From a virus, in IMG/VR virus record IMGVR_UViG_3300042860_004360, positions 1 to 25,816 of that record: a stretch of DNA of 25,816 bases; one strand, written 5' to 3'. Positions within the stretch are counted from its first letter, which is position 1; every line of letters begins with the position of its first letter. This document shows positions 324 to 25,572 of this stretch, one piece after another. The notes beneath the pieces were generated by a model that saw nothing but the letters and a program-made list of their open reading frames with translations, was not told the origin of the DNA and searched no databases. The translations under genes and the position numbers were made by a program.

Positions 324-787
324 GATTTTTTAATTTCTGGTTGTATTTTGATTTTTAAAAATTCTTTACTCATATTTTTAATAATATCTATTATATCTGA
401 TATATTACTATATGGAATAACTTTATTATGAATTCTATTCCATGAATTACATATATTTTCAGATACTGCAATTTGATATACTGGTTCGAACATATAATGA
501 TTGGGCACTTCTGATATATAATTTGGTTTTTCAACATGATCTATAATGATTAGTGGGCAATGTAAAAATAGTGCTAATTCTATACATTTATCTAAATTTA
601 TCATTCTATTATTGCAAACTACAAGATCTATATCATAAATACCATATAGAGTATCCTCCATATCTATAAGATTAATATTATCTTTTTCTATATGCTTTTC
701 AAAATTTTTATGATCAGTGTATGTCCATAATACATTTGGTGTGTTATTCATTAATAGAGTTTTATGTATAATTGATGATATACTCAT
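320..787 (-). CDS. Unknown protein of the glycosyltransferase cluster
   Basis: A 155-residue protein whose start ATG overlaps the TGA of the upstream glycosyltransferase (ATGA), so translation is probably coupled. The segment DLVVCNNRMINLDKCIELA followed by LHCPLIIIDHVEKP looks like alternating strand and helix of a GT-B-type Rossmann half. That would make it a partial glycosyltransferase-like fold without the donor-binding E-x7-E half. No catalytic motif is visible, and no signal peptide or membrane segment. It may be an accessory or acceptor-binding partner of the two neighbouring glycosyltransferases. The gene call is firm; the function is unknown. Confidence 0.75.
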   Translation of the reverse strand: MSISSIIHKTLLMNNTPNVLWTYTDHKNFEKHIEKDNINLIDMEDTLYGIYDIDLVVCNNRMINLDKCIELALFLHCPLIIIDHVEKPNYISEVPNHYMFEPVYQIAVSENICNSWNRIHNKVIPYSNISDIIDIIKNMSKEFLKIKIQPEIKKS

Positions 788-1890
788 ATAAACCCTTTAA
801 TATTATTGATAGAATAGCTTAGGACTTTATGGTTTTGTGATTCTATTCGCTCAGACTTTTCTGAAAGAGACTCACTTAAAGCTCGCTTCATTTGCATAAC
901 CAAACTATCAAGTTCCGGAACATAATATTTATGATGAAAAGAATTATATATCCAATATGGATGACTATTATCGTGAGCATTTTTAGGGGTTGATTCTACT
1001 CCATAGAATTTTGTACCCTTAACTATATCTGAAGAACCAGAATTCTTATTCACTATAATCTGATTATTAAAACACATAGCCTCTAATACTGGATATCCAA
1101 AACTTTCTCCGGACGATATATCTATATAACAATCGCAATTATTATGTATATATAGTATATTATCATATTTAGTTTCCCCTACTATAAGTGTTGGGTATGT
1201 TATATTTTTATCGATCTTAAAAGGTAATGAATCTATTATTTTATCTATTTCATAGGTCAATAAAGATGTTAAGTTACTACTATCATTATTTGTATTTTTA
1301 GTTTTAATCAGTAGTCCAGTATCTGGAAATTCTATAGCAATAATAAAGAATGCTAGAATCAAAGTTTGTAGATTTTTTTTATTAGTAAAATCTGATATGG
1401 TATAAAACATAAACTTGTTTTTTTTAGATTGTTTTATATTTTTCTGTTTATAATCATCTATAATTGATAAATCTATAAATTCTGGCACAACTTTTATTTT
1501 ATCAATATCTATGTTGCCATTAATAAGTTCTTCTCTAGCGTGTGTTGAACCAACCCAAATTTCATCCACGATATTCAGATATTCATAAATATCGTATCCA
1601 TAATGAGTTTTATCTAAAGAAACTATACCTATATTTTTATAGCCATTGATATGACAAAACTGGTGTGGATATGCATGTTGAATTATTGTATCATAATTGT
1701 CTAAATTATTCTTTTCACAACGAATAATAATATCTTCTAATTCTTGTTCTATAATAGGTTTTATAGTATTGAATAGTGGGCGACAGACAATATTGAATCC
1801 AGCGTCGCATAAAGCCTGTATATATTTTCTAGATGCATTACCTATTCCAGTAAATTCTCTATATGGTCCTATATATAGTATATTATTCAT
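784..1890 (-). CDS. Glycosyltransferase, GT4-like (GT-B fold)
   Basis: A 368-residue protein that probably transfers a sugar from a nucleotide-sugar donor in the cytoplasm; the acceptor is unknown. The N-terminus, NNILYIGPYREFTGIGNASR, is the first GT-B strand followed by a glycine-containing loop. The C-terminal half has ESFGYPVLEA, the E-x7-E donor-binding motif of GT4-like retaining enzymes, followed by a further strand and a Gly-Ser-Ser turn. The length fits a single-domain GT-B enzyme. The ATG overlaps the TGA of the upstream glycosyltransferase by ATGA. Likely targets are virion protein, phage DNA or a host surface glycan; nothing here decides between them. Confidence 0.85.
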   Translation of the reverse strand: MNNILYIGPYREFTGIGNASRKYIQALCDAGFNIVCRPLFNTIKPIIEQELEDIIIRCEKNNLDNYDTIIQHAYPHQFCHINGYKNIGIVSLDKTHYGYDIYEYLNIVDEIWVGSTHAREELINGNIDIDKIKVVPEFIDLSIIDDYKQKNIKQSKKNKFMFYTISDFTNKKNLQTLILAFFIIAIEFPDTGLLIKTKNTNNDSSNLTSLLTYEIDKIIDSLPFKIDKNITYPTLIVGETKYDNILYIHNNCDCYIDISSGESFGYPVLEAMCFNNQIIVNKNSGSSDIVKGTKFYGVESTPKNAHDNSHPYWIYNSFHHKYYVPELDSLVMQMKRALSESLSEKSERIESQNHKVLSYSINNIKGFI

Positions 1891-3491
1891 GATGACAAGA
1901 AATTATCATTTAGTTTGATTTTTCCTGATCTGACTTGTTCACAAAAGACTTTATTATTTAAGAATATCTCTAGTGCTTTGATAACCGCTTCTCTGGCTTG
2001 AATATTATTTTTATTTGATGTGATATCAATAGATTCATTGAGTGATTTTATTAGGTTTTGAGCAAAATAAGTTTTTAATAAATTAGGCTCACACATAATA
2101 TCACGGATAATAAATTCTACAAATTCTCTATTGGATAGATTATCTGGAACTGATAGTTTTGTATTGGCATTCATTGGAACAGACCATATGTCTTCATTTA
2201 TAGGCATATTATCAAAAACATCCATGATAGTTTTTGCTGTCATATCCCAACTATAATTTTGAACTAATAATTCTCTTGTTTTATGTGAAAATTTAAGCTT
2301 ATCTTTTGTTGTTTTTTGCATCCATTCCATGATCTCGTGCATTAAATGATCATTATCTGGTGTTGCCCTATCTGATCCGGTTTCCAACTCAGTAGCCAAT
2401 AAATAATTAATTTTAACGCCATCAACTTTAGATGTTATTTCTTCCATTCCGCTATAATTAACAGAAAAAATAGGTATACCACAAGAAGCAGCTTCTAGCT
2501 GAGGAATACCCAAGCCTTCACAAATAGCATACTGTACATATATATCAAATAAATTATATACATCATTAAGCTGATCGTTATTAATACCTAATTGCACATT
2601 AGGGAAGATGGATACTCCATCGTCACATGACGGAGATGGTATCTTTGAGCCTTTATATTTTGATACAAATATACTATTATCCTTAATAGAATAATATGTA
2701 AATAATACATTATTCTCCACCCCATGCTCTTGTAACAATTCGGGAATCGGCCAACCCTGTTTTTCTGGATAAGAAGTATGCAAATATAAAAATATATTAT
2801 GATTATTTGTCGTATCTATTAATTTTCTTAGAACTTTAAATAATTCAGCAATGAGTTTACGCTTTTGATTTCTCATTACTGATCCTATAATAATAGAATC
2901 GGCTGGTAAACCATATCTAGATTTATGATATGTTTTTGTACAGTGTACTGGTTGAAAAACTTCTGTGTCAACAGAATCTGTGATGCACGGACCAACATTA
3001 ATAGGTCTATTTAGAGACCTTAAATAGTCTCCAGCCCAATCGGTATGTGTTAATACCATATCTGCATTTTCAAACGTTGTTAACCATTCTGTTTTTTGTG
3101 GTATAGAATCTATGGTTGGGGCTATTATCCATTTATAGTATGGTCTTAAACATGAAAGTTCTTGGTAGGAGAACATCCAATAATCCCTTATATCAAAAAC
3201 TATATCAGGTTTAAAATCTAATAATACTTTTTCGAATCTCCATTGACCAAATTGATTAAGCTGATTAGATTCGTATGCTTCTATACTTTGTTTATCATCG
3301 TCTTTTGGTACGTTTGAGTATACTTTCCATGGTACGTTTGTTTTTGATCCATCTTTATGATAACAAGCCAATTCAGCAAGCTCATATTTATTACTTTTAC
3401 TTAGTCTGTATAGTATTTCCTTTGTGTATCTGCCGAATCCAGAATTTATATGATGCGCCTCTGCACACATCAATACTCGTTTTTTTCTCAT
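1887..3491 (-). CDS. Glycosyltransferase, GT4-like, long form
   Basis: A 534-residue protein and the first gene of the glycosyltransferase operon. The N-terminal motif RVLMCAEAHHINSGFGRYTK is typical of GT4 enzymes (strand, then a GxGRY-type loop). The donor-site motif EGLGIPQLEAASCGIPIF lies at about residues 325-342 and includes E-x7-E. About 100 residues after the GT-B core are not recognised and could be an acceptor-binding or oligomerisation tail. ATG at 3491 has no obvious Shine-Dalgarno sequence; its leader is the short A-rich stretch below the terminator hairpin. A strong promoter at 3546-3575 should drive it. The reaction class is confident, the sugar and acceptor unknown. Confidence 0.87.
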   Translation of the reverse strand: MRKKRVLMCAEAHHINSGFGRYTKEILYRLSKSNKYELAELACYHKDGSKTNVPWKVYSNVPKDDDKQSIEAYESNQLNQFGQWRFEKVLLDFKPDIVFDIRDYWMFSYQELSCLRPYYKWIIAPTIDSIPQKTEWLTTFENADMVLTHTDWAGDYLRSLNRPINVGPCITDSVDTEVFQPVHCTKTYHKSRYGLPADSIIIGSVMRNQKRKLIAELFKVLRKLIDTTNNHNIFLYLHTSYPEKQGWPIPELLQEHGVENNVLFTYYSIKDNSIFVSKYKGSKIPSPSCDDGVSIFPNVQLGINNDQLNDVYNLFDIYVQYAICEGLGIPQLEAASCGIPIFSVNYSGMEEITSKVDGVKINYLLATELETGSDRATPDNDHLMHEIMEWMQKTTKDKLKFSHKTRELLVQNYSWDMTAKTIMDVFDNMPINEDIWSVPMNANTKLSVPDNLSNREFVEFIIRDIMCEPNLLKTYFAQNLIKSLNESIDITSNKNNIQAREAVIKALEIFLNNKVFCEQVRSGKIKLNDNFLSS

Positions 3492-3577: not shown

Positions 3578-3949
3578 TCAGAAAGCTACTGATGATTCAG
3601 CAGTTACTGCATCTTTCTTATAGACTCTTGTTACTTTGGCAAAGTTATTAACTCTGACCTTTAATGTAGAGTGCTTGACTCCATCCTTTTCCCAAGAATC
3701 ATTCCTTAAACTACCTTCGATCATAACAAGATCACCCTTTTTGAAAGACGATCCGATGACTTCAGCACCGCTATCCCACGCTTCACATTGGATATATGAA
3801 ACAATCTTATCTTTTGTTCCATTAGCTCTTGTGAAATCCTTGGATACAGCAACCGTAAAAGAAACTACGGATGTTTGCTTTTCTCCGCTACTAACAACAC
3901 GTAGCTCTGGATCCCTAGTTAAATTACCTTTTAAAATTACAATATTCAT
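3578..3949 (-). CDS. ssb: Single-stranded DNA-binding protein
   Basis: A 123-residue OB-fold SSB that coats single-stranded DNA at the fork. The N-terminus NIVILKGNLTRDPELR is the canonical SSB opening strand, followed by FTVAVSKDF and the loop and strand YIQCEAWDSGAEVI; GDLVMIEGSL is the conserved late strand. Start choice: ATG at 3949 sits 7-8 bases after GGAG, whereas an in-frame TTG at 3955 is too close to that site. The usual acidic tip (DDDIPF) is missing: the protein ends AESSVAF with a terminal Phe but only one acidic residue nearby. It has its own extended -10 promoter just upstream, consistent with a need for high expression. Confidence 0.93.
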   Translation of the reverse strand: MNIVILKGNLTRDPELRVVSSGEKQTSVVSFTVAVSKDFTRANGTKDKIVSYIQCEAWDSGAEVIGSSFKKGDLVMIEGSLRNDSWEKDGVKHSTLKVRVNNFAKVTRVYKKDAVTAESSVAF

Positions 3950-3994
3950 AAGCAATCTCCTTTAAGTTAAAACAAAAATACAATCAACACTTAT

Positions 3995-4024: not shown

Positions 4025-5629
4025 CTATACCAAAAAACATTTTTTTGCGATAATTGAATTATTTTTTTGGTTCTTTTGTCCATTAAACATCAACACTCGG
4101 CCCTCTAGCAGTAATTCCTTATATTTAGAAAAATCATCAGGAAACATAACAACAGAATCCAGACTACCAGCACCATCTGATAATCTCAAAAAACACATTT
4201 CTTGTCCTGGTGTTTTTCCTCTTTTAGTTACAATAACACTCATATTTTCAATTTCAGCTATTAGAAAAAATTGTTTATTTTCAGGGAATGTCTTTATAGT
4301 TTTACAGTCAGTATTAGCGTATGACGAGTCATAGAAGTCCGTTTTAGCATACGATATCGATACGCCGAGTATGTCTCTTTCATTATTAGAAACCCACTCA
4401 GGATCGTCTGTTAAAGCATAAGAAGGATCCGATAACTGGTTAAGTATACTTAAAACTTTTGGATGTCTATTTTTAGATATTTTACTATTTGCTAGTAATA
4501 GCCTAACTATATCGCATGAATTATTAATTTTATTAGAATGTATAATTTCAAGACACTTACTAATTTCTTTATCTGTTAATTCCAATATCAAATTTAATTC
4601 GAATAGCATTTTATTTCTGGAAATTTTAAGATAGTCTAAAGCTCCAGATAAGATTATAGCTTTAGCAGATGACGAGTTGATATTTACCAAAATTCTTAAT
4701 AATGTATTTGGCCAATCTAATGATGCAACATCTAAATTTTCTGTTATTGATAATATTTTTTGATAAACAGAATCCCCTAATCCTTTGATGTTCGTTAATC
4801 CGAAATATATTTTTCCATCAATAATAGCAAAATCTTTATTCTTGTGTTTTAATTGTGGTCCAAAAACACTAATGCCCATATCCTTTGCATTACTAATTAA
4901 TTCTAACGTTTCTAATTGTGGATCAATTTTATCTTTAGCTAATCTAAGATATGATAAGAAAAAAATGGTTGGAAAGTGTGTTTTAGCATACGCTGATATA
5001 TAAGCATTGATTGCGTAACTCACAGCATGGCTTTTATTAAAAGAATATCTTTGACTTTTTTCTATCCATCCGAATATTTGTTCGGCCTCATCTGTTGATA
5101 CCTTAGCCATACTTCTAGTGCCATCTAAGAATTTGGTTTTAATCTTTGCCATTTCTTCTGGCTTTTTCTTTCCTATAGCCTTACGCAACATATCAGCTTC
5201 TTGCAAATTAAAGCCAGCTATATCTTTGGCTATTTCCATTGCTTGTTCTTGATATACCATTTCTCCATAAGTATTTTTCAAGATTGGCTCTAACGAACTA
5301 TGAAAATAGTCTATAGATTCGTTACCGTTTTTTCTATCAATATAATGATATGATACGCTTTTTCCATCTCTATATGCTTCCAAGCATCCTGGTCTTAAAA
5401 TACTAATCAAAGCGGATAATTCTTCTATATTAGTAGGCTTGAGTTTTTTACTCATTGCTTGCCCAAGGCGGCTCTCTAATTGAAAACATCCTTTGGTATT
5501 TCCTTCAGAGATTAAGTCCCAGGTTTTTTGACAACTAAAATTTATATTATGAATATCAAAATCGATAGATGTTTTTTGTTTATCCAAACTATCGGTTGGG
5601 AACTCACAACCGCACTCAAACTTTATCAT
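4025..5629 (-). CDS. dnaE: DNA polymerase III alpha, C-terminal half (fingers, HhH, OB)
   Basis: A 534-residue protein matching the part of bacterial DnaE that follows the palm. Landmarks in order are CFQLES (48-53), ILRPG (77-81), YGEMVYQEQAMEIA (121-134), ADMLRKAIGKKKPEEM (145-160), FNKSHAVSYA (197-206), an HhH-type region near 280-330, and an OB fold at about 430-534 (MSVIVTKRGK, then FLRLSDGAGSLDSVVMF). It supplies DNA and dNTP binding but contains none of the catalytic aspartates, which lie in the separate gene at 6477-8354. The first 45 residues carry Cys6, Cys8 and Cys33, a possible small metal site. No QADMF-type clamp-binding motif is visible after the HhH region. It overlaps the exonuclease gene by 14 bases. 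Confidence 0.9.
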   Translation of the reverse strand: MIKFECGCEFPTDSLDKQKTSIDFDIHNINFSCQKTWDLISEGNTKGCFQLESRLGQAMSKKLKPTNIEELSALISILRPGCLEAYRDGKSVSYHYIDRKNGNESIDYFHSSLEPILKNTYGEMVYQEQAMEIAKDIAGFNLQEADMLRKAIGKKKPEEMAKIKTKFLDGTRSMAKVSTDEAEQIFGWIEKSQRYSFNKSHAVSYAINAYISAYAKTHFPTIFFLSYLRLAKDKIDPQLETLELISNAKDMGISVFGPQLKHKNKDFAIIDGKIYFGLTNIKGLGDSVYQKILSITENLDVASLDWPNTLLRILVNINSSSAKAIILSGALDYLKISRNKMLFELNLILELTDKEISKCLEIIHSNKINNSCDIVRLLLANSKISKNRHPKVLSILNQLSDPSYALTDDPEWVSNNERDILGVSISYAKTDFYDSSYANTDCKTIKTFPENKQFFLIAEIENMSVIVTKRGKTPGQEMCFLRLSDGAGSLDSVVMFPDDFSKYKELLLEGRVLMFNGQKNQKNNSIIAKKCFLV

Positions 5630-6314
5630 TTAAAAAGGCGTCCTTAAATATAATCTTAGCAGATAAATTTCTATGTAGTCTCATAAATCTTAATAATATT
5701 TTGGCACAGTCTTTTACGTCTTTCAGAGCATCATGAGCACCATCTTTTGATATTCCCATATATTCTCTGATCGTATCTAAAGAATAATTTTTGATATTGA
5801 TATTTTCGAACCAATAGAATACCAAATTCATTATGTCGAGTACGTCTCTTGGATAAAATAAAGTGGTGATATTTTCTTTAGCATCAACATTTTTATATTT
5901 TTCGCTTAATCTTTGTATAATTTTCAGATCAAATCTATTTATATTATATCCAGCGGCAATAGGTGCGGAGAATATACTCTTTTTCTTATATCCAAAACAA
6001 TTATATTTCTCTAGATAACTGACAAAAGCTTTCCATGAAACTTCTTGGGATGGATATTCGTTCCAAGCGGCGTATATCGCTTCTTGAGAACAACCTCTAA
6101 CCTTTGAATGAAATTCGATTATATCAGTATCATACTTATAATCAGAATTATTCTCCATCGGTTCTGGTTTAAAAAAAGCATTAAATTCAGAATCTGGAAC
6201 AATCTCTAGTTTAACGGGATCTATTATAACAGCCGCTAATTGTACTGGACTACAAACCAGAGGATTTGATCCATCGGTTTCAAAGTCAAAAACACATATT
6301 TTTTTGGTCAGCAT
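5616..6314 (-). CDS. DnaQ-like 3'-5' proofreading exonuclease (DEDDh)
   Basis: A 232-residue exonuclease that probably removes misincorporated 3' nucleotides for the phage polymerase. All three motifs are visible: ExoI in VFDFETDG (D and E), ExoII in YNINRFDL, and ExoIII in AHDALKDVKD, with the His and Asp that define the DEDDh class. Length and motif order match the epsilon family. The gene lies between the two halves of DNA polymerase III alpha and overlaps the C-half by 14 bases, so a joint complex is likely by inference. The C-terminal tail after the last motif is short and carries no recognised clamp-binding motif. A separate role, such as RNA degradation, cannot be excluded. Confidence 0.9.
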   Translation of the reverse strand: MLTKKICVFDFETDGSNPLVCSPVQLAAVIIDPVKLEIVPDSEFNAFFKPEPMENNSDYKYDTDIIEFHSKVRGCSQEAIYAAWNEYPSQEVSWKAFVSYLEKYNCFGYKKKSIFSAPIAAGYNINRFDLKIIQRLSEKYKNVDAKENITTLFYPRDVLDIMNLVFYWFENINIKNYSLDTIREYMGISKDGAHDALKDVKDCAKILLRFMRLHRNLSAKIIFKDAFLNDKV

Positions 6315-6316
6315 AT

Positions 6317-6490
6317 TTATTGTACTTTTTCTACTTCATCCAACGGTTTTAGTACTGCCTTTTGTCCTGTGGTAAGAATCTGACAGTTATCTTTGATCTT
6401 GCAGCAACTGACCCTCATTTCTGGAGTCTTAATATACTCCTGATTATTGTGAATAAATTTTTCTCCAACCGCAACTTCATGAAATTTCAT
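6317..6490 (-). CDS. Small conserved-looking protein between the polymerase halves
   Basis: A 57-residue protein starting at ATG 6490, which lies 8 bases after a strong AAGGAG. A longer frame to 6562 is possible but would overlap the polymerase gene heavily and has no better ribosome site. The protein reads F-x-E-V-x-V-G-E-x-F at the N-terminus, then QEYIKTP and three closely spaced cysteines (CCKIKDNC). The pattern vGexFxxxxxxYxKT is familiar from short phage proteins of unknown function. It overlaps the end of the polymerase N-half by 14 bases and stops 2 bases before the exonuclease start. Its place suggests a replication accessory, but function is unknown. Confidence 0.78.
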   Translation of the reverse strand: MKFHEVAVGEKFIHNNQEYIKTPEMRVSCCKIKDNCQILTTGQKAVLKPLDEVEKVQ

Positions 6491-8354
6491 TTGAAACTCC
6501 TTTCTTGAGATATTCTGATATATACATGATTTTGTCCAACATAGCAACACCAAGGATATCAAATTTTACAATTCCGATACTTTCCAAATCTTCCATTTCC
6601 ATTCCGGCTATTCTAGTTTTTGTTTTAGTATCATACACCATGGGACATATGCTGGATAATTCGGTATCAGCAATAACGACGCCAGCCGCATGTTTAGATT
6701 GGTTCACTTTAGTTCCCTCTAATCTAATAGCCTGTTCAAATCTTTTGGCAAGCGGCCCCTGAAATTGTCCATTATTATCAATATGACACCATTCTTTTAG
6801 TTTGTCTGGCTGGTTCTCCAATGCCCAACGTATAATTGACGATTCACCTGTTTCGTCTTTCATTTCTTGAAGTTCGTCTGCTATTTTAGCTTCATCGGGT
6901 ATATTTTTAGTAATATTATTCATTTCTTCAAAACCAATATTACCATATACTCTTAATACGTCTTTAATAGCACCTCTACCTTTAATTGTATTGAATGTAA
7001 CCATCTGTGAAACCTGACTAGATCCATACTTCATTTTAATATAAGAAATAATATCTTCTCTCTTTTCAATGGGAACGTCAACATCAATATCCGGCATACT
7101 TACTCGATCACCAGTATTTCGTCCAGAGTTGTAGAATCTATCAAACAATAAACTATATCTTATCGGATCAATATTGGTTATACCAATTAAGTAGGATACT
7201 AGACACCCGGCAGCACTACCTCGACCCGGTCCTGGAAGCCATTTGTTGTCTCTAACATGATTGACAATATCTTGAACTATTAAAAAGTAACTACTAAGAC
7301 CAGCTCCTTGTAAAATATCTAATTCATATTTGATTCTATCAACATAAATACTCTGCTGTTCTTTTGGTATATTATTTTGTATTTTATCTTTCCATCCTTT
7401 TCTGCATAGTTCTCTTAAGAATTCATCTGGAGCATCGCAACCAAATGGTGGCAATCTAGGTTTGCTTTCAATTTCATAATTTTCGCACATATCAGATACT
7501 AATAGAGTATTATCTCTTTCTTCTTCTGTGTGCAGAGCGGCAATTTCTTCTTGAGATAAAATATGATAATTATCAGAAGTAAAGAAACACCCCATTGGTA
7601 TATCTTGATTTTGATTAATCTTTTTACTAATTTCTGGCATTGTGGTTTTTAGATTATTACACAATAGTATTCTTTGATCTGAAGCATCCTCTTTATTCGC
7701 ATAATGAGCGTCTGGAGTACATATAATTTTGGTTTTTGTAAATTGACCTAATGCCCTTACAACTTCTGTTAATTTCTTTTGTATGGGTAAATTTTCTTGA
7801 TCCATTAATTGGGCTTCCAAGAATAAATTTTCTGGACCAAATATATCTTTTAATTGATCTATCAATCTGGTTCCTATATTTTTCCAATCAGGAATAATTT
7901 GATCATTTTCCGTAATTTTATCGGCCAATAAAGAACCTAGATGGCCGCAAATACCTATTAGGTTGCCGTCACAGAATCTCTCCAGATTGTTTAAATCGAT
8001 CCTAGGCTTGTGATAATAAAAGTCTGGTCTGTTGGACTCTGATACCAGATTGATTAAATTCTGCCACCCGGTTTTATTTTTGGCCAATACAATAAAATGG
8101 CTAAGTTCTTTATTTGACTTATCTTTTATAGAAGCATCTTCTGATATATACAACTCACATCCTAGAATTGGTTTTATACCAGCTTTCTTCATAACCTTGT
8201 GAAATTTAATAGCACCAGCTATATTACCGTGGTCTGTTAAAGCACAAGCGGTAGATCCTATTTCTAAACATCTATCAGCTATTTGTTGAGGTTTAGATAA
8301 ACCGTCTAATAGACTATACATCGAGTGACAATGTAAAGGATTATAAAATTTCAT
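6477..8354 (-). CDS. dnaE: DNA polymerase III alpha, N-terminal half (PHP and palm)
   Basis: A 625-residue protein equal to the front half of bacterial DnaE. The PHP domain has HCHSMYSLLDG (8-18), TDHGN (40-44), GCE (65-67) and TPDAHY (213-218). The palm has PGPGRGSAAG (374-383) and the catalytic MPDIDVD (Asp422 and Asp424, matching E. coli D401 and D403). HAAGVV (555-560) and KFDILG with Asp599 (E. coli D555) follow. The chain ends about 26 residues after Asp599, before the FQLES fingers segment found in the gene at 4025-5629. The two proteins total 1159 residues, about the length of a complete DnaE. The ATG overlaps the upstream TGA. No intein motif is seen at the break. Confidence 0.92.
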   Translation of the reverse strand: MKFYNPLHCHSMYSLLDGLSKPQQIADRCLEIGSTACALTDHGNIAGAIKFHKVMKKAGIKPILGCELYISEDASIKDKSNKELSHFIVLAKNKTGWQNLINLVSESNRPDFYYHKPRIDLNNLERFCDGNLIGICGHLGSLLADKITENDQIIPDWKNIGTRLIDQLKDIFGPENLFLEAQLMDQENLPIQKKLTEVVRALGQFTKTKIICTPDAHYANKEDASDQRILLCNNLKTTMPEISKKINQNQDIPMGCFFTSDNYHILSQEEIAALHTEEERDNTLLVSDMCENYEIESKPRLPPFGCDAPDEFLRELCRKGWKDKIQNNIPKEQQSIYVDRIKYELDILQGAGLSSYFLIVQDIVNHVRDNKWLPGPGRGSAAGCLVSYLIGITNIDPIRYSLLFDRFYNSGRNTGDRVSMPDIDVDVPIEKREDIISYIKMKYGSSQVSQMVTFNTIKGRGAIKDVLRVYGNIGFEEMNNITKNIPDEAKIADELQEMKDETGESSIIRWALENQPDKLKEWCHIDNNGQFQGPLAKRFEQAIRLEGTKVNQSKHAAGVVIADTELSSICPMVYDTKTKTRIAGMEMEDLESIGIVKFDILGVAMLDKIMYISEYLKKGVSNEIS

Positions 8355-24411: not shown

Positions 24412-25572
24412 TTATATAACTCCTAGAATGGAAGAACCGTTGATGCCGCGAGGGATCGGAAACGGCGTGCGATTGGCGTAGGTTTCAGTGCCATTCACAA
24501 CGCCAGTGCTTCCGTTGTACGAACTGTCATTGAAAGTCGCGTCTCCGGTGACGGTGCCGCTGTTGTACGAACTGCCGTTGAACGTCGCGTTGCCACTGAC
24601 GCCGCCGTCGTTGTACGCATTGTTGTTGAACGTGGCGTCTCCGATAACAATGCCGCCGCCGCTGTTATATGAACTGTCGTTGAACGTGGCGTCTCCGGGG
24701 ACGGTGCCTTCGTTGTTGTACGAACTGTCGTTGAACGTCGCGTCTACGCCGAGCGTGCCGTTGTAGTTGTACGAACTGTCGTTGAATGTCGCGTCTCCGG
24801 TGAAGGTGCCGTAGTTGTTGTACGAATTGTCGTTGAACGTCGCATCGCCGTTGACGGTGCCTTCGTTGATGTATGAATAATCATTAAACGTGGCGTCTCC
24901 GGTGACGGTGCCGCCGGAGTTGTTGTATGAATAATCATTAAAAGTAGCATGTTGATTGATAGTATTAGAATTATCAGCACCTCCATAAAATATAGCATTT
25001 CCATTTACGTATCCGTAGTTAATCATATCGATAAATGTAGCATTATTTCCGATATATCCCTCGTTTACCGACGATGCTTCAAAAATTGCGTTACCATTTA
25101 CGGAGCCGCTTCCGTTATTATATCCACCAGCACCAAAGGTAGCATTTCCATTGATAGTACCATTGTTATAACCAAGAGAATTAAATAATACACTACCATT
25201 AATAATACCATTATTATTTCCGCTATAAGAGGCTCCAGTTAAATAAACCTTGTGTGCGGTTAGTGTGCCTGTTAAGAAGGCATCTATTATAATTGCAATA
25301 GTATAATATTCCGAAACTTGAATAGCCGTAATATTTATGCCAAGCGTTGCAGTACCGCCGCTCACACTGCCATTAGATGGACCACCATCAAAAGTAAGAG
25401 TGTTAACTATAGCACCACTACCGCTATTAGTTAAACAATCAGCAATCATTATAACATCGTCAGCACTACTAGGTAAAGATGTGGCAGGAACGGAGTATAC
25501 ATTATCGCTCCACCAGTTGCCGAGCGTGTTCCAGTTGCTGTCGACCGCGCCGTTGAAATACAGAGTTGCCAT
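24412..25572 (-). CDS. Repeat-rich beta-solenoid-type surface or tail protein
   Basis: A 386-residue protein. The N-terminal part, with FNGAVDSNWNTLGNWWSDN, resembles the opening of some phage and bacterial repeat proteins. From about residue 124 to 365 there are about 14 tandem units of 15-18 residues, core GDATFNDSSYNxGTV. The regular G, F, N and Y positions are typical of right-handed beta-solenoids. AAAGGT precedes the ATG. It follows a tail-fibre-like gene, so a tail-fibre, host-binding or decoy role is likely by inference. Base composition is mixed: a GC-rich block in the C-terminal half and another at the very start, within an AT-rich gene. Confidence 0.82.
   Translation of the reverse strand: MATLYFNGAVDSNWNTLGNWWSDNVYSVPATSLPSSADDVIMIADCLTNSGSGAIVNTLTFDGGPSNGSVSGGTATLGINITAIQVSEYYTIAIIIDAFLTGTLTAHKVYLTGASYSGNNNGIINGSVLFNSLGYNNGTINGNATFGAGGYNNGSGSVNGNAIFEASSVNEGYIGNNATFIDMINYGYVNGNAIFYGGADNSNTINQHATFNDYSYNNSGGTVTGDATFNDYSYINEGTVNGDATFNDNSYNNYGTFTGDATFNDSSYNYNGTLGVDATFNDSSYNNEGTVPGDATFNDSSYNSGGGIVIGDATFNNNAYNDGGVSGNATFNGSSYNSGTVTGDATFNDSSYNGSTGVVNGTETYANRTPFPIPRGINGSSILGVI
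24478..25203 (-). repeat. Tandem protein-coding repeats, about 14 units of 45-54 bases
   Basis: These are imperfect tandem copies that encode GDATFNDSSYN-like units of 15-18 residues. In the GC-rich part the copies are close in DNA (GTTGAACGTCGCGTCTCCGG recurs with small changes). In the AT-rich part the same residues use AT-rich codons and copies are more diverged. Such arrays can gain or lose units by recombination or slippage. Confidence 0.85.

What the first reader, a model, noticed from the sequence alone, without database searches (positions are those of the whole stretch)
4025..8354. DNA polymerase III alpha split into two genes around a proofreading exonuclease
The PHP/palm half (625 residues, Asp422, Asp424 and Asp599) and the fingers/HhH/OB half (534 residues) together equal one DnaE. 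The break falls between KFDxLG and FQLES. Between them lie a 57-residue gene and a DEDDh exonuclease. Known cyanobacterial DnaE splits use an intein at the FNKSHS motif; here that motif is intact in the C-half and no intein motifs are seen, so the halves would have to assemble without splicing. In PolC the exonuclease is inserted in the same chain; here the same activities are arranged as separate genes. A polymerase assembled from several chains would be unusual.
Basis: partly seen in the sequence, partly recalled or inferred. Interest (0 to 1): 0.78.

Follow-up and report, generated by a model that had tools for sequence, protein, structure and literature searches.

The report
Phage DNA polymerase in two genes
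A large, mostly uncultured group of phages makes its only detected DNA polymerase as two separate proteins, cut between the part that holds the catalytic metals and the part that grips the incoming nucleotide, with no intein at the cut, so the enzyme most likely works as an assembled pair.

Summary
The window (IMG/VR phage fragment, 33% GC) encodes a PHP/palm half (8354-6477), a 57-aa gene, a DEDDh exonuclease and a fingers/HhH/OB half (5629-4025), with nothing of the DnaE core missing. It is not an artefact: 109 distinct relatives from the viral contigs have the same two halves with the exonuclease between them, 94 of them with the small gene too. Both halves are under strong purifying selection. 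In 14 large relatives no other A-, B- or C-family polymerase was found. No intein, Rfam intron or read-through candidate lies at the joint. Best reading: a constitutively two-chain C-family replicase whose active site forms across a protein interface. More distant relatives broken at the same joint carry RNase HII, dUTPase + thymidine kinase, or nothing between the halves, and one relative (L147) has the joint intact with the exonuclease elsewhere. Split PolIII-alpha in phages has precedents (a minimal jumbo-phage version, PMC7824862; cultured phage phiT1, same joint), so this is a new, well-supported variant of a known kind. Assembly and activity are inferred, not shown.

The parts
6477..8354 (-). 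DnaE N-half, 625 aa: PHP domain plus palm/thumb, with all three catalytic Asp (422, 424, 599); ends ...KFDILGVAMLDKIMYISEYLKKGVSNEIS
   Evidence: Pfam PHP and DNA_pol3_alpha; Asp invariant in 51 relatives; matches E. coli/Taq/Mtb alpha N part
6317..6490 (-). 57-aa gene (s57), overlaps the N-half by 14 nt; predicted small beta barrel, invariant F12 C29 C30; function unknown
   Evidence: model pLDDT 95.7; only weak EF-P/KOW-like fold matches; no PDB sequence match
5616..6314 (-). DEDDh 3'-5' exonuclease, 232 aa; D10, E12, D129, H194, D199 invariant
   Evidence: RNase_T, phrog_192 polymerase exonuclease subunit, invariant residues
4025..5629 (-). DnaE C-half, 534 aa: fingers, HhH, OB; begins with an extra ~20-aa segment MIKFECGCEFP... 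carrying C6 and C8; C33 follows in the fingers part
   Evidence: Pfam finger and HHH_6; model pLDDT 85.6 matching DnaE structures at Foldseek E 4e-23; C6, C8, C33 invariant in 52 aligned relatives
3578..3955 (-). SSB just downstream; conserved neighbour
   Evidence: Pfam SSB; also next to the C-half in L107-L112
8351..9352 (-). PD-(D/E)XK nuclease just upstream; conserved neighbour
   Evidence: Pfam PDDEXK_1; upstream of the N-half in L107-L112 and in remote L116

Best explanation
This is the replicative C-family DNA polymerase of an uncultured phage group, made constitutively as two polypeptides from two adjacent genes. The break lies in the linker after the last palm motif (KFDxLG, third catalytic Asp) and before the fingers. 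Chain 1 carries the PHP domain and the catalytic aspartates; chain 2 carries the fingers that bind the incoming nucleotide, the HhH and the OB domain. The chains are translated separately and dock non-covalently into a normal DnaE fold, so the active site is built across a chain interface. The DEDDh exonuclease acts as a separate proofreading protein, like DnaQ. The gap between the halves is a permissive slot holding different DNA-metabolism genes in different lineages. Fission by a homing element at this linker is a plausible origin. SHOWN: anatomy, conservation of the split, purifying selection, absence of other detected polymerases, variable cargo, no intein at the joint. INFERRED: docking, activity, proofreading partnership, origin.
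For: Complete, non-overlapping coverage of DnaE by the halves. The same split in 109 distinct loci with the exonuclease, plus L114/L116, L123, L142 and L125 without it and phage phiT1. N ends and C starts are sharply conserved. dN/dS 0.03-0.11 for both halves where synonymous sites are not saturated. All catalytic Asp, DEDDh residues and 9 positions aligned with the M. tuberculosis PHP metal ligands are conserved. One PF07733 and one PF17657 protein set and no PF00136 or PF00476 in 14 relatives of 69-233 kb. C-half predicted to fold as DnaE fingers-to-OB on its own. No intein in the window halves and no Rfam match in the window. Synteny DnaB-primase-kinase-nuclease-N-[slot]-C-glycosyltransferases kept in remote L116 with different cargo.
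Against: No interface model could be computed (single-chain predictor only) and no biochemistry exists. L147 shows the joint can be intact in a near relative, so splitting is not required. None of the 14 large contigs is rated complete, so another polymerase could lie outside them; the host polymerase could in principle do the replication. No phage beta clamp was detected.
Confidence: 0.8

Rival explanations
1. The halves are joined into one chain after all, by trans-splicing, an undescribed intron, or programmed frameshift/bypass across the intervening genes.
For: Inteins do sit in the same polymerase in relatives (L029 contiguous, L014/L078 split), so splicing is available to this lineage at other sites.
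Against: No intein domain in the window halves and none of the splice-junction sequence seen in relatives at this joint; no Rfam intron. The intervening ORFs are conserved under purifying selection and differ between lineages. The C-half has its own start, SD-like sequence and usually an added N-terminal segment that would disrupt a join.
Confidence: 0.05
2. Exonuclease and 57-aa protein are integral, obligatory subunits that hold the two halves together (one four-chain enzyme encoded by an ordered cassette, the first reader's idea).
For: The order N/s57/exo/C is kept in 94 distinct loci; each of 14 large relatives carries one RNase_T protein, at this locus.
Against: s57 is missing from the slot in 15 exonuclease-bearing loci. 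Other cargo sits in the slot in L116, L123 and L142, and none in L125. L147 has the joint intact and the exonuclease several genes downstream.
Confidence: 0.12
3. The split polymerase is inactive or has another job (repair, or interference with host PolIII); the host polymerase replicates the phage.
For: No phage beta clamp detected; replicative function is inferred from family membership only.
Against: Catalytic residues invariant, strong purifying selection, and placement beside DnaB helicase, primase and SSB.
Confidence: 0.06
4. Sequencing or assembly artefact.
For: A few relatives do look frameshifted (L109, L048).
Against: Over 100 distinct loci from many samples with the same boundaries.
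Confidence: 0.005

Closest known systems
Minimal split PolIII-alpha of group 2.2 jumbo phages (Iyer et al. 2021, PMC7824862)
   Same: C-family polymerase in two phage proteins, proposed to reconstitute without splicing
   Different: There it is a minimal core lacking other PolIII domains, in distantly located genes, alongside a family B polymerase; here it is full length with PHP, HhH and OB, in neighbouring genes, with no other polymerase detected
Rossellomorea phage phiT1 gp20/gp19/gp18 (PV767480)
   Same: DnaE broken at the same joint (N ends ...KFDLLGLKTLKVIQNSVDQINQGVAV; C starts MFDILDIPLDDAKTYKLL) with a small gene between
   Different: About 30-33% identity, groups outside the window's clade in the tree, different small gene, no exonuclease in the slot, no CGC segment; I found no paper discussing it
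Cyanobacterial split-intein DnaE
   Same: DnaE encoded by two genes
   Different: That break is at the FNK/SHS site and is healed by protein trans-splicing (my knowledge); here the break is between palm and fingers and has no intein
Fractured genes with split inteins and free-standing endonucleases (Dassa et al. 2009, known to me; cited in PMC6892783)
   Same: Seen in relatives L014 and L078 at GPGRG|SAAG with an endonuclease-like ORF between; a plausible route to fission
   Different: The window's own joint has no intein or endonuclease
Bacillus phage vB_BauM_KLEB27-3 (OM634661)
   Same: DnaE in two ORFs
   Different: Broken slightly further downstream (...LFQIELI) by an annotated HNH endonuclease gene, which looks like a recent insertion

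Membership tests
C-family (DnaE-type) DNA polymerase | PHP + palm with three catalytic Asp + fingers + HhH + OB | tested here: met
   Pfam/PHROG/PDB profile matches split over two ORFs; D422/D424/D599 invariant
C-family (DnaE-type) DNA polymerase | one polypeptide | tested here: not met
   two ORFs in the window and its relatives
C-family (DnaE-type) DNA polymerase | DNA synthesis activity | not testable with these tools
   needs biochemistry
Cyanobacterial split-intein DnaE | IntN at the end of the N-half and IntC at the start of the C-half | tested here: not met
   no intein/Hint domain in the window halves; conserved ends carry none
PolC | exonuclease inserted within the chain | tested here: not met
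   exonuclease is a separate ORF between the halves; best PDB matches are DnaE, PolC far weaker
Jumbo-phage minimal split PolIII-alpha (PMC7824862) | minimal core only, distantly located genes, coexisting family B polymerase | tested here: not met
   PHP, HhH and OB present, neighbouring genes, no PF00136 in 14 large relatives
DEDDh proofreading exonuclease (DnaQ-like) | D-E-D-H-D active-site residues | tested here: met
   D10, E12, D129, H194, D199 invariant in 30 relatives
DEDDh proofreading exonuclease (DnaQ-like) | binding to the polymerase | not testable with these tools
   no complex prediction available

The most novel reading that the evidence does not exclude
An old, stably inherited, intein-free two-chain full-length DnaE replicase whose active site is built across an inter-chain interface (in some relatives, L151 and similar, apparently three chains), with the gap used as a slot for changing DNA-metabolism genes and at least one lineage (L147) possibly re-fused.
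Probability: 0.7. Interest if true: 0.72.

Novelty: new variant of a known kind. Interest (0 to 1): 0.6.

Why it matters
If the halves assemble, a replicative polymerase tolerates having its catalytic metals and its nucleotide-binding fingers on different molecules over long evolutionary times. That would give a natural split-polymerase scaffold, a test of how multi-chain replicases arise by gene fission, and a view of how homing elements reshape essential phage genes. The mixture of fused, cargo-free split and cargo-bearing split relatives makes the question directly testable.

Tried and rejected
Rfam on the window and on the second-break loci: no intron. Intein domains at the joint: none. 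A universal C-x-C...C metal site as the glue: C6, C8 and C33 are invariant in the first 52 aligned loci and in L116, but L143, L192, L185 and L190 lack C-x-C, and L125, L123, L142 and phiT1 show no such motif, so it is not obligatory. s57 fold: only a weak EF-P/KOW-like barrel match, no function claimed. s57 in annotated phages: no match. Host by genome contigs: only 28-32% distant hits. DUF1559 host clue: present in only 1 of 14 large relatives, so the host is left open. Papers: none found that describes this arrangement. Dassa 2009 is not held.

Full report
Observation. The window is a 25.8-kb phage fragment (33% GC) with its main genes on the minus strand. Neighbouring ORFs overlap by 14 nt at two junctions. 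The halves tile a full phage DnaE profile (phrog_405 43-616 and 617-1067) and E. coli alpha about 6-573 and 584-1056. Compared with fused DnaE, nothing of the core is lost; the C-half gains about 20 residues with C-x-C, followed by a Cys just before the TW motif.

Not an artefact. Searches of viral contigs gave, after removing repeated C-half sequences, 109 loci with N-half, exonuclease and C-half in this order, 94 of them also with s57 (8 of these have a second break in the N-half). N ends fall at profile position 611-625, and most C starts at 1-5. dN/dS against close relatives is 0.03-0.11 for all four genes where synonymous sites are not saturated. Catalytic Asp, DEDDh residues and the PHP positions aligned with the nine metal ligands of M. 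tuberculosis DnaE1 (ligand list from my knowledge; Cys158 replaced by H138) are conserved.

Sole detected polymerase. In 14 relatives of 69-233 kb the split halves are the only PF07733 and PF17657 proteins; no family A or B polymerase is found, nor a beta clamp. None of these records is rated complete.

The slot between the halves. In remote L114/L116 (C 30%, N 33% identity; same synteny DnaB-primase-kinase-nuclease-N-[slot]-C-glycosyltransferases) the slot holds a 111-aa ORF, RNase HII and a zinc-ribbon protein. L142 has dUTPase, a 165-aa ORF, a zinc-ribbon-like ORF and thymidine kinase; L138 has uracil-DNA glycosylase plus a 111-aa ORF plus the exonuclease; L125 has none, the ORFs overlapping by 27 nt; L146 has an 823-aa ORF between s57 and exonuclease. 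In L147 the joint is intact and the exonuclease lies downstream. So exonuclease and s57 are one of several fillings, not a required bridge.

Tree. In a 30-row mixture-model tree the window's clade (24 rows, 100/100) contains the split lineages plus fused L127 and L147; phiT1 falls outside, suggesting a separate fission at the same joint. Parsimony needs 4 changes in all. L147 (placement support 80/76) keeps the C33-type Cys (PLDC) seen in its split relatives, which fits re-fusion but does not prove it. Long branches (L120) make the deep order unsure.

Homing elements. Relatives carry a split intein at GPGRG|SAAG (L014, L078), a contiguous HNH intein at RPG|CLEA (L029), and a second N-half break beside a LAGLIDADG ORF just before the PDIDVD motif (L147, L151, L156 and similar). 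Together with KLEB27-3, where an HNH gene separates the halves, this makes homing-driven fission a plausible origin; it is inference.

Mechanism. The simplest reading is separate translation and non-covalent docking of palm and fingers chains, with the exonuclease as a separate proofreader. Docking and activity were not testable here: only single chains can be modelled, and I used the two jobs on the C-half (pLDDT 85.6, matches DnaE structures) and s57 (pLDDT 95.7, small barrel).

Known precedents. A minimal split PolIII-alpha in group 2.2 jumbo phages (PMC7824862), cultured phiT1 at the same joint, a split-intein PolB in MIJ3 (PMC6892783) and split DNA polymerases in OM43 phages (PMC10580990). 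New here are the full-length, PHP-bearing form, its wide conservation as the only detected polymerase, and the variable slot.

Noticed in passing
L045 3981-7111 and L078 4032-7136: Split intein in the N-half at GPGRG|SAAG with a ~264-aa endonuclease-like ORF (weak Phage_endo_I / TnsA-like matches) between IntN and IntC.
   Followed up: partly
L029 4145-6481: Contiguous intein with HNH_2 domain in the C-half at RPG|CLEA.
   Followed up: partly
L151 2979-6050; L147 4101-8590: Second break of the N-half just before the PDIDVD motif with a LAGLIDADG ORF between; the downstream piece has a conserved ~90-aa N-terminal extension; no Rfam intron, no intein seen by eye. L151-type polymerases would be three chains.
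   Followed up: partly
L147 2098-4119 and L151 1069-3060: The upstream PD-(D/E)XK nuclease gene carries what looks like a large in-frame intein (ends ...PTHN before TG[KR]R).
   Followed up: no
L050 2124-2810 (same insert in L051): A 229-aa ORF, HNH-like by eye but not confirmed by Pfam, inserted between N-half and s57.
   Followed up: partly
L069 5359-7820 and L070 4343-7832: 2.6-3.6 kb of cargo between exonuclease and C-half including a DUF1559 pilin-like protein (PF07596 8.5e-43) and a ThyX-like ORF; a possible hint at Planctomycetota hosts.
   Followed up: partly
L146 3817-6285: 823-aa ORF with RCC1-like repeats and structural-protein look between s57 and exonuclease (similar gap in L174, L176).
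   Followed up: no
window 24412-25572: 386-aa protein of degenerate ~16-aa repeats (GDATFNDSSYN...), no PHROG match; likely a repetitive structural or adhesin-like protein.
   Followed up: no
window 784-3491: Two glycosyltransferases next to the replication genes, also beside the split polymerase in remote L116.
   Followed up: partly
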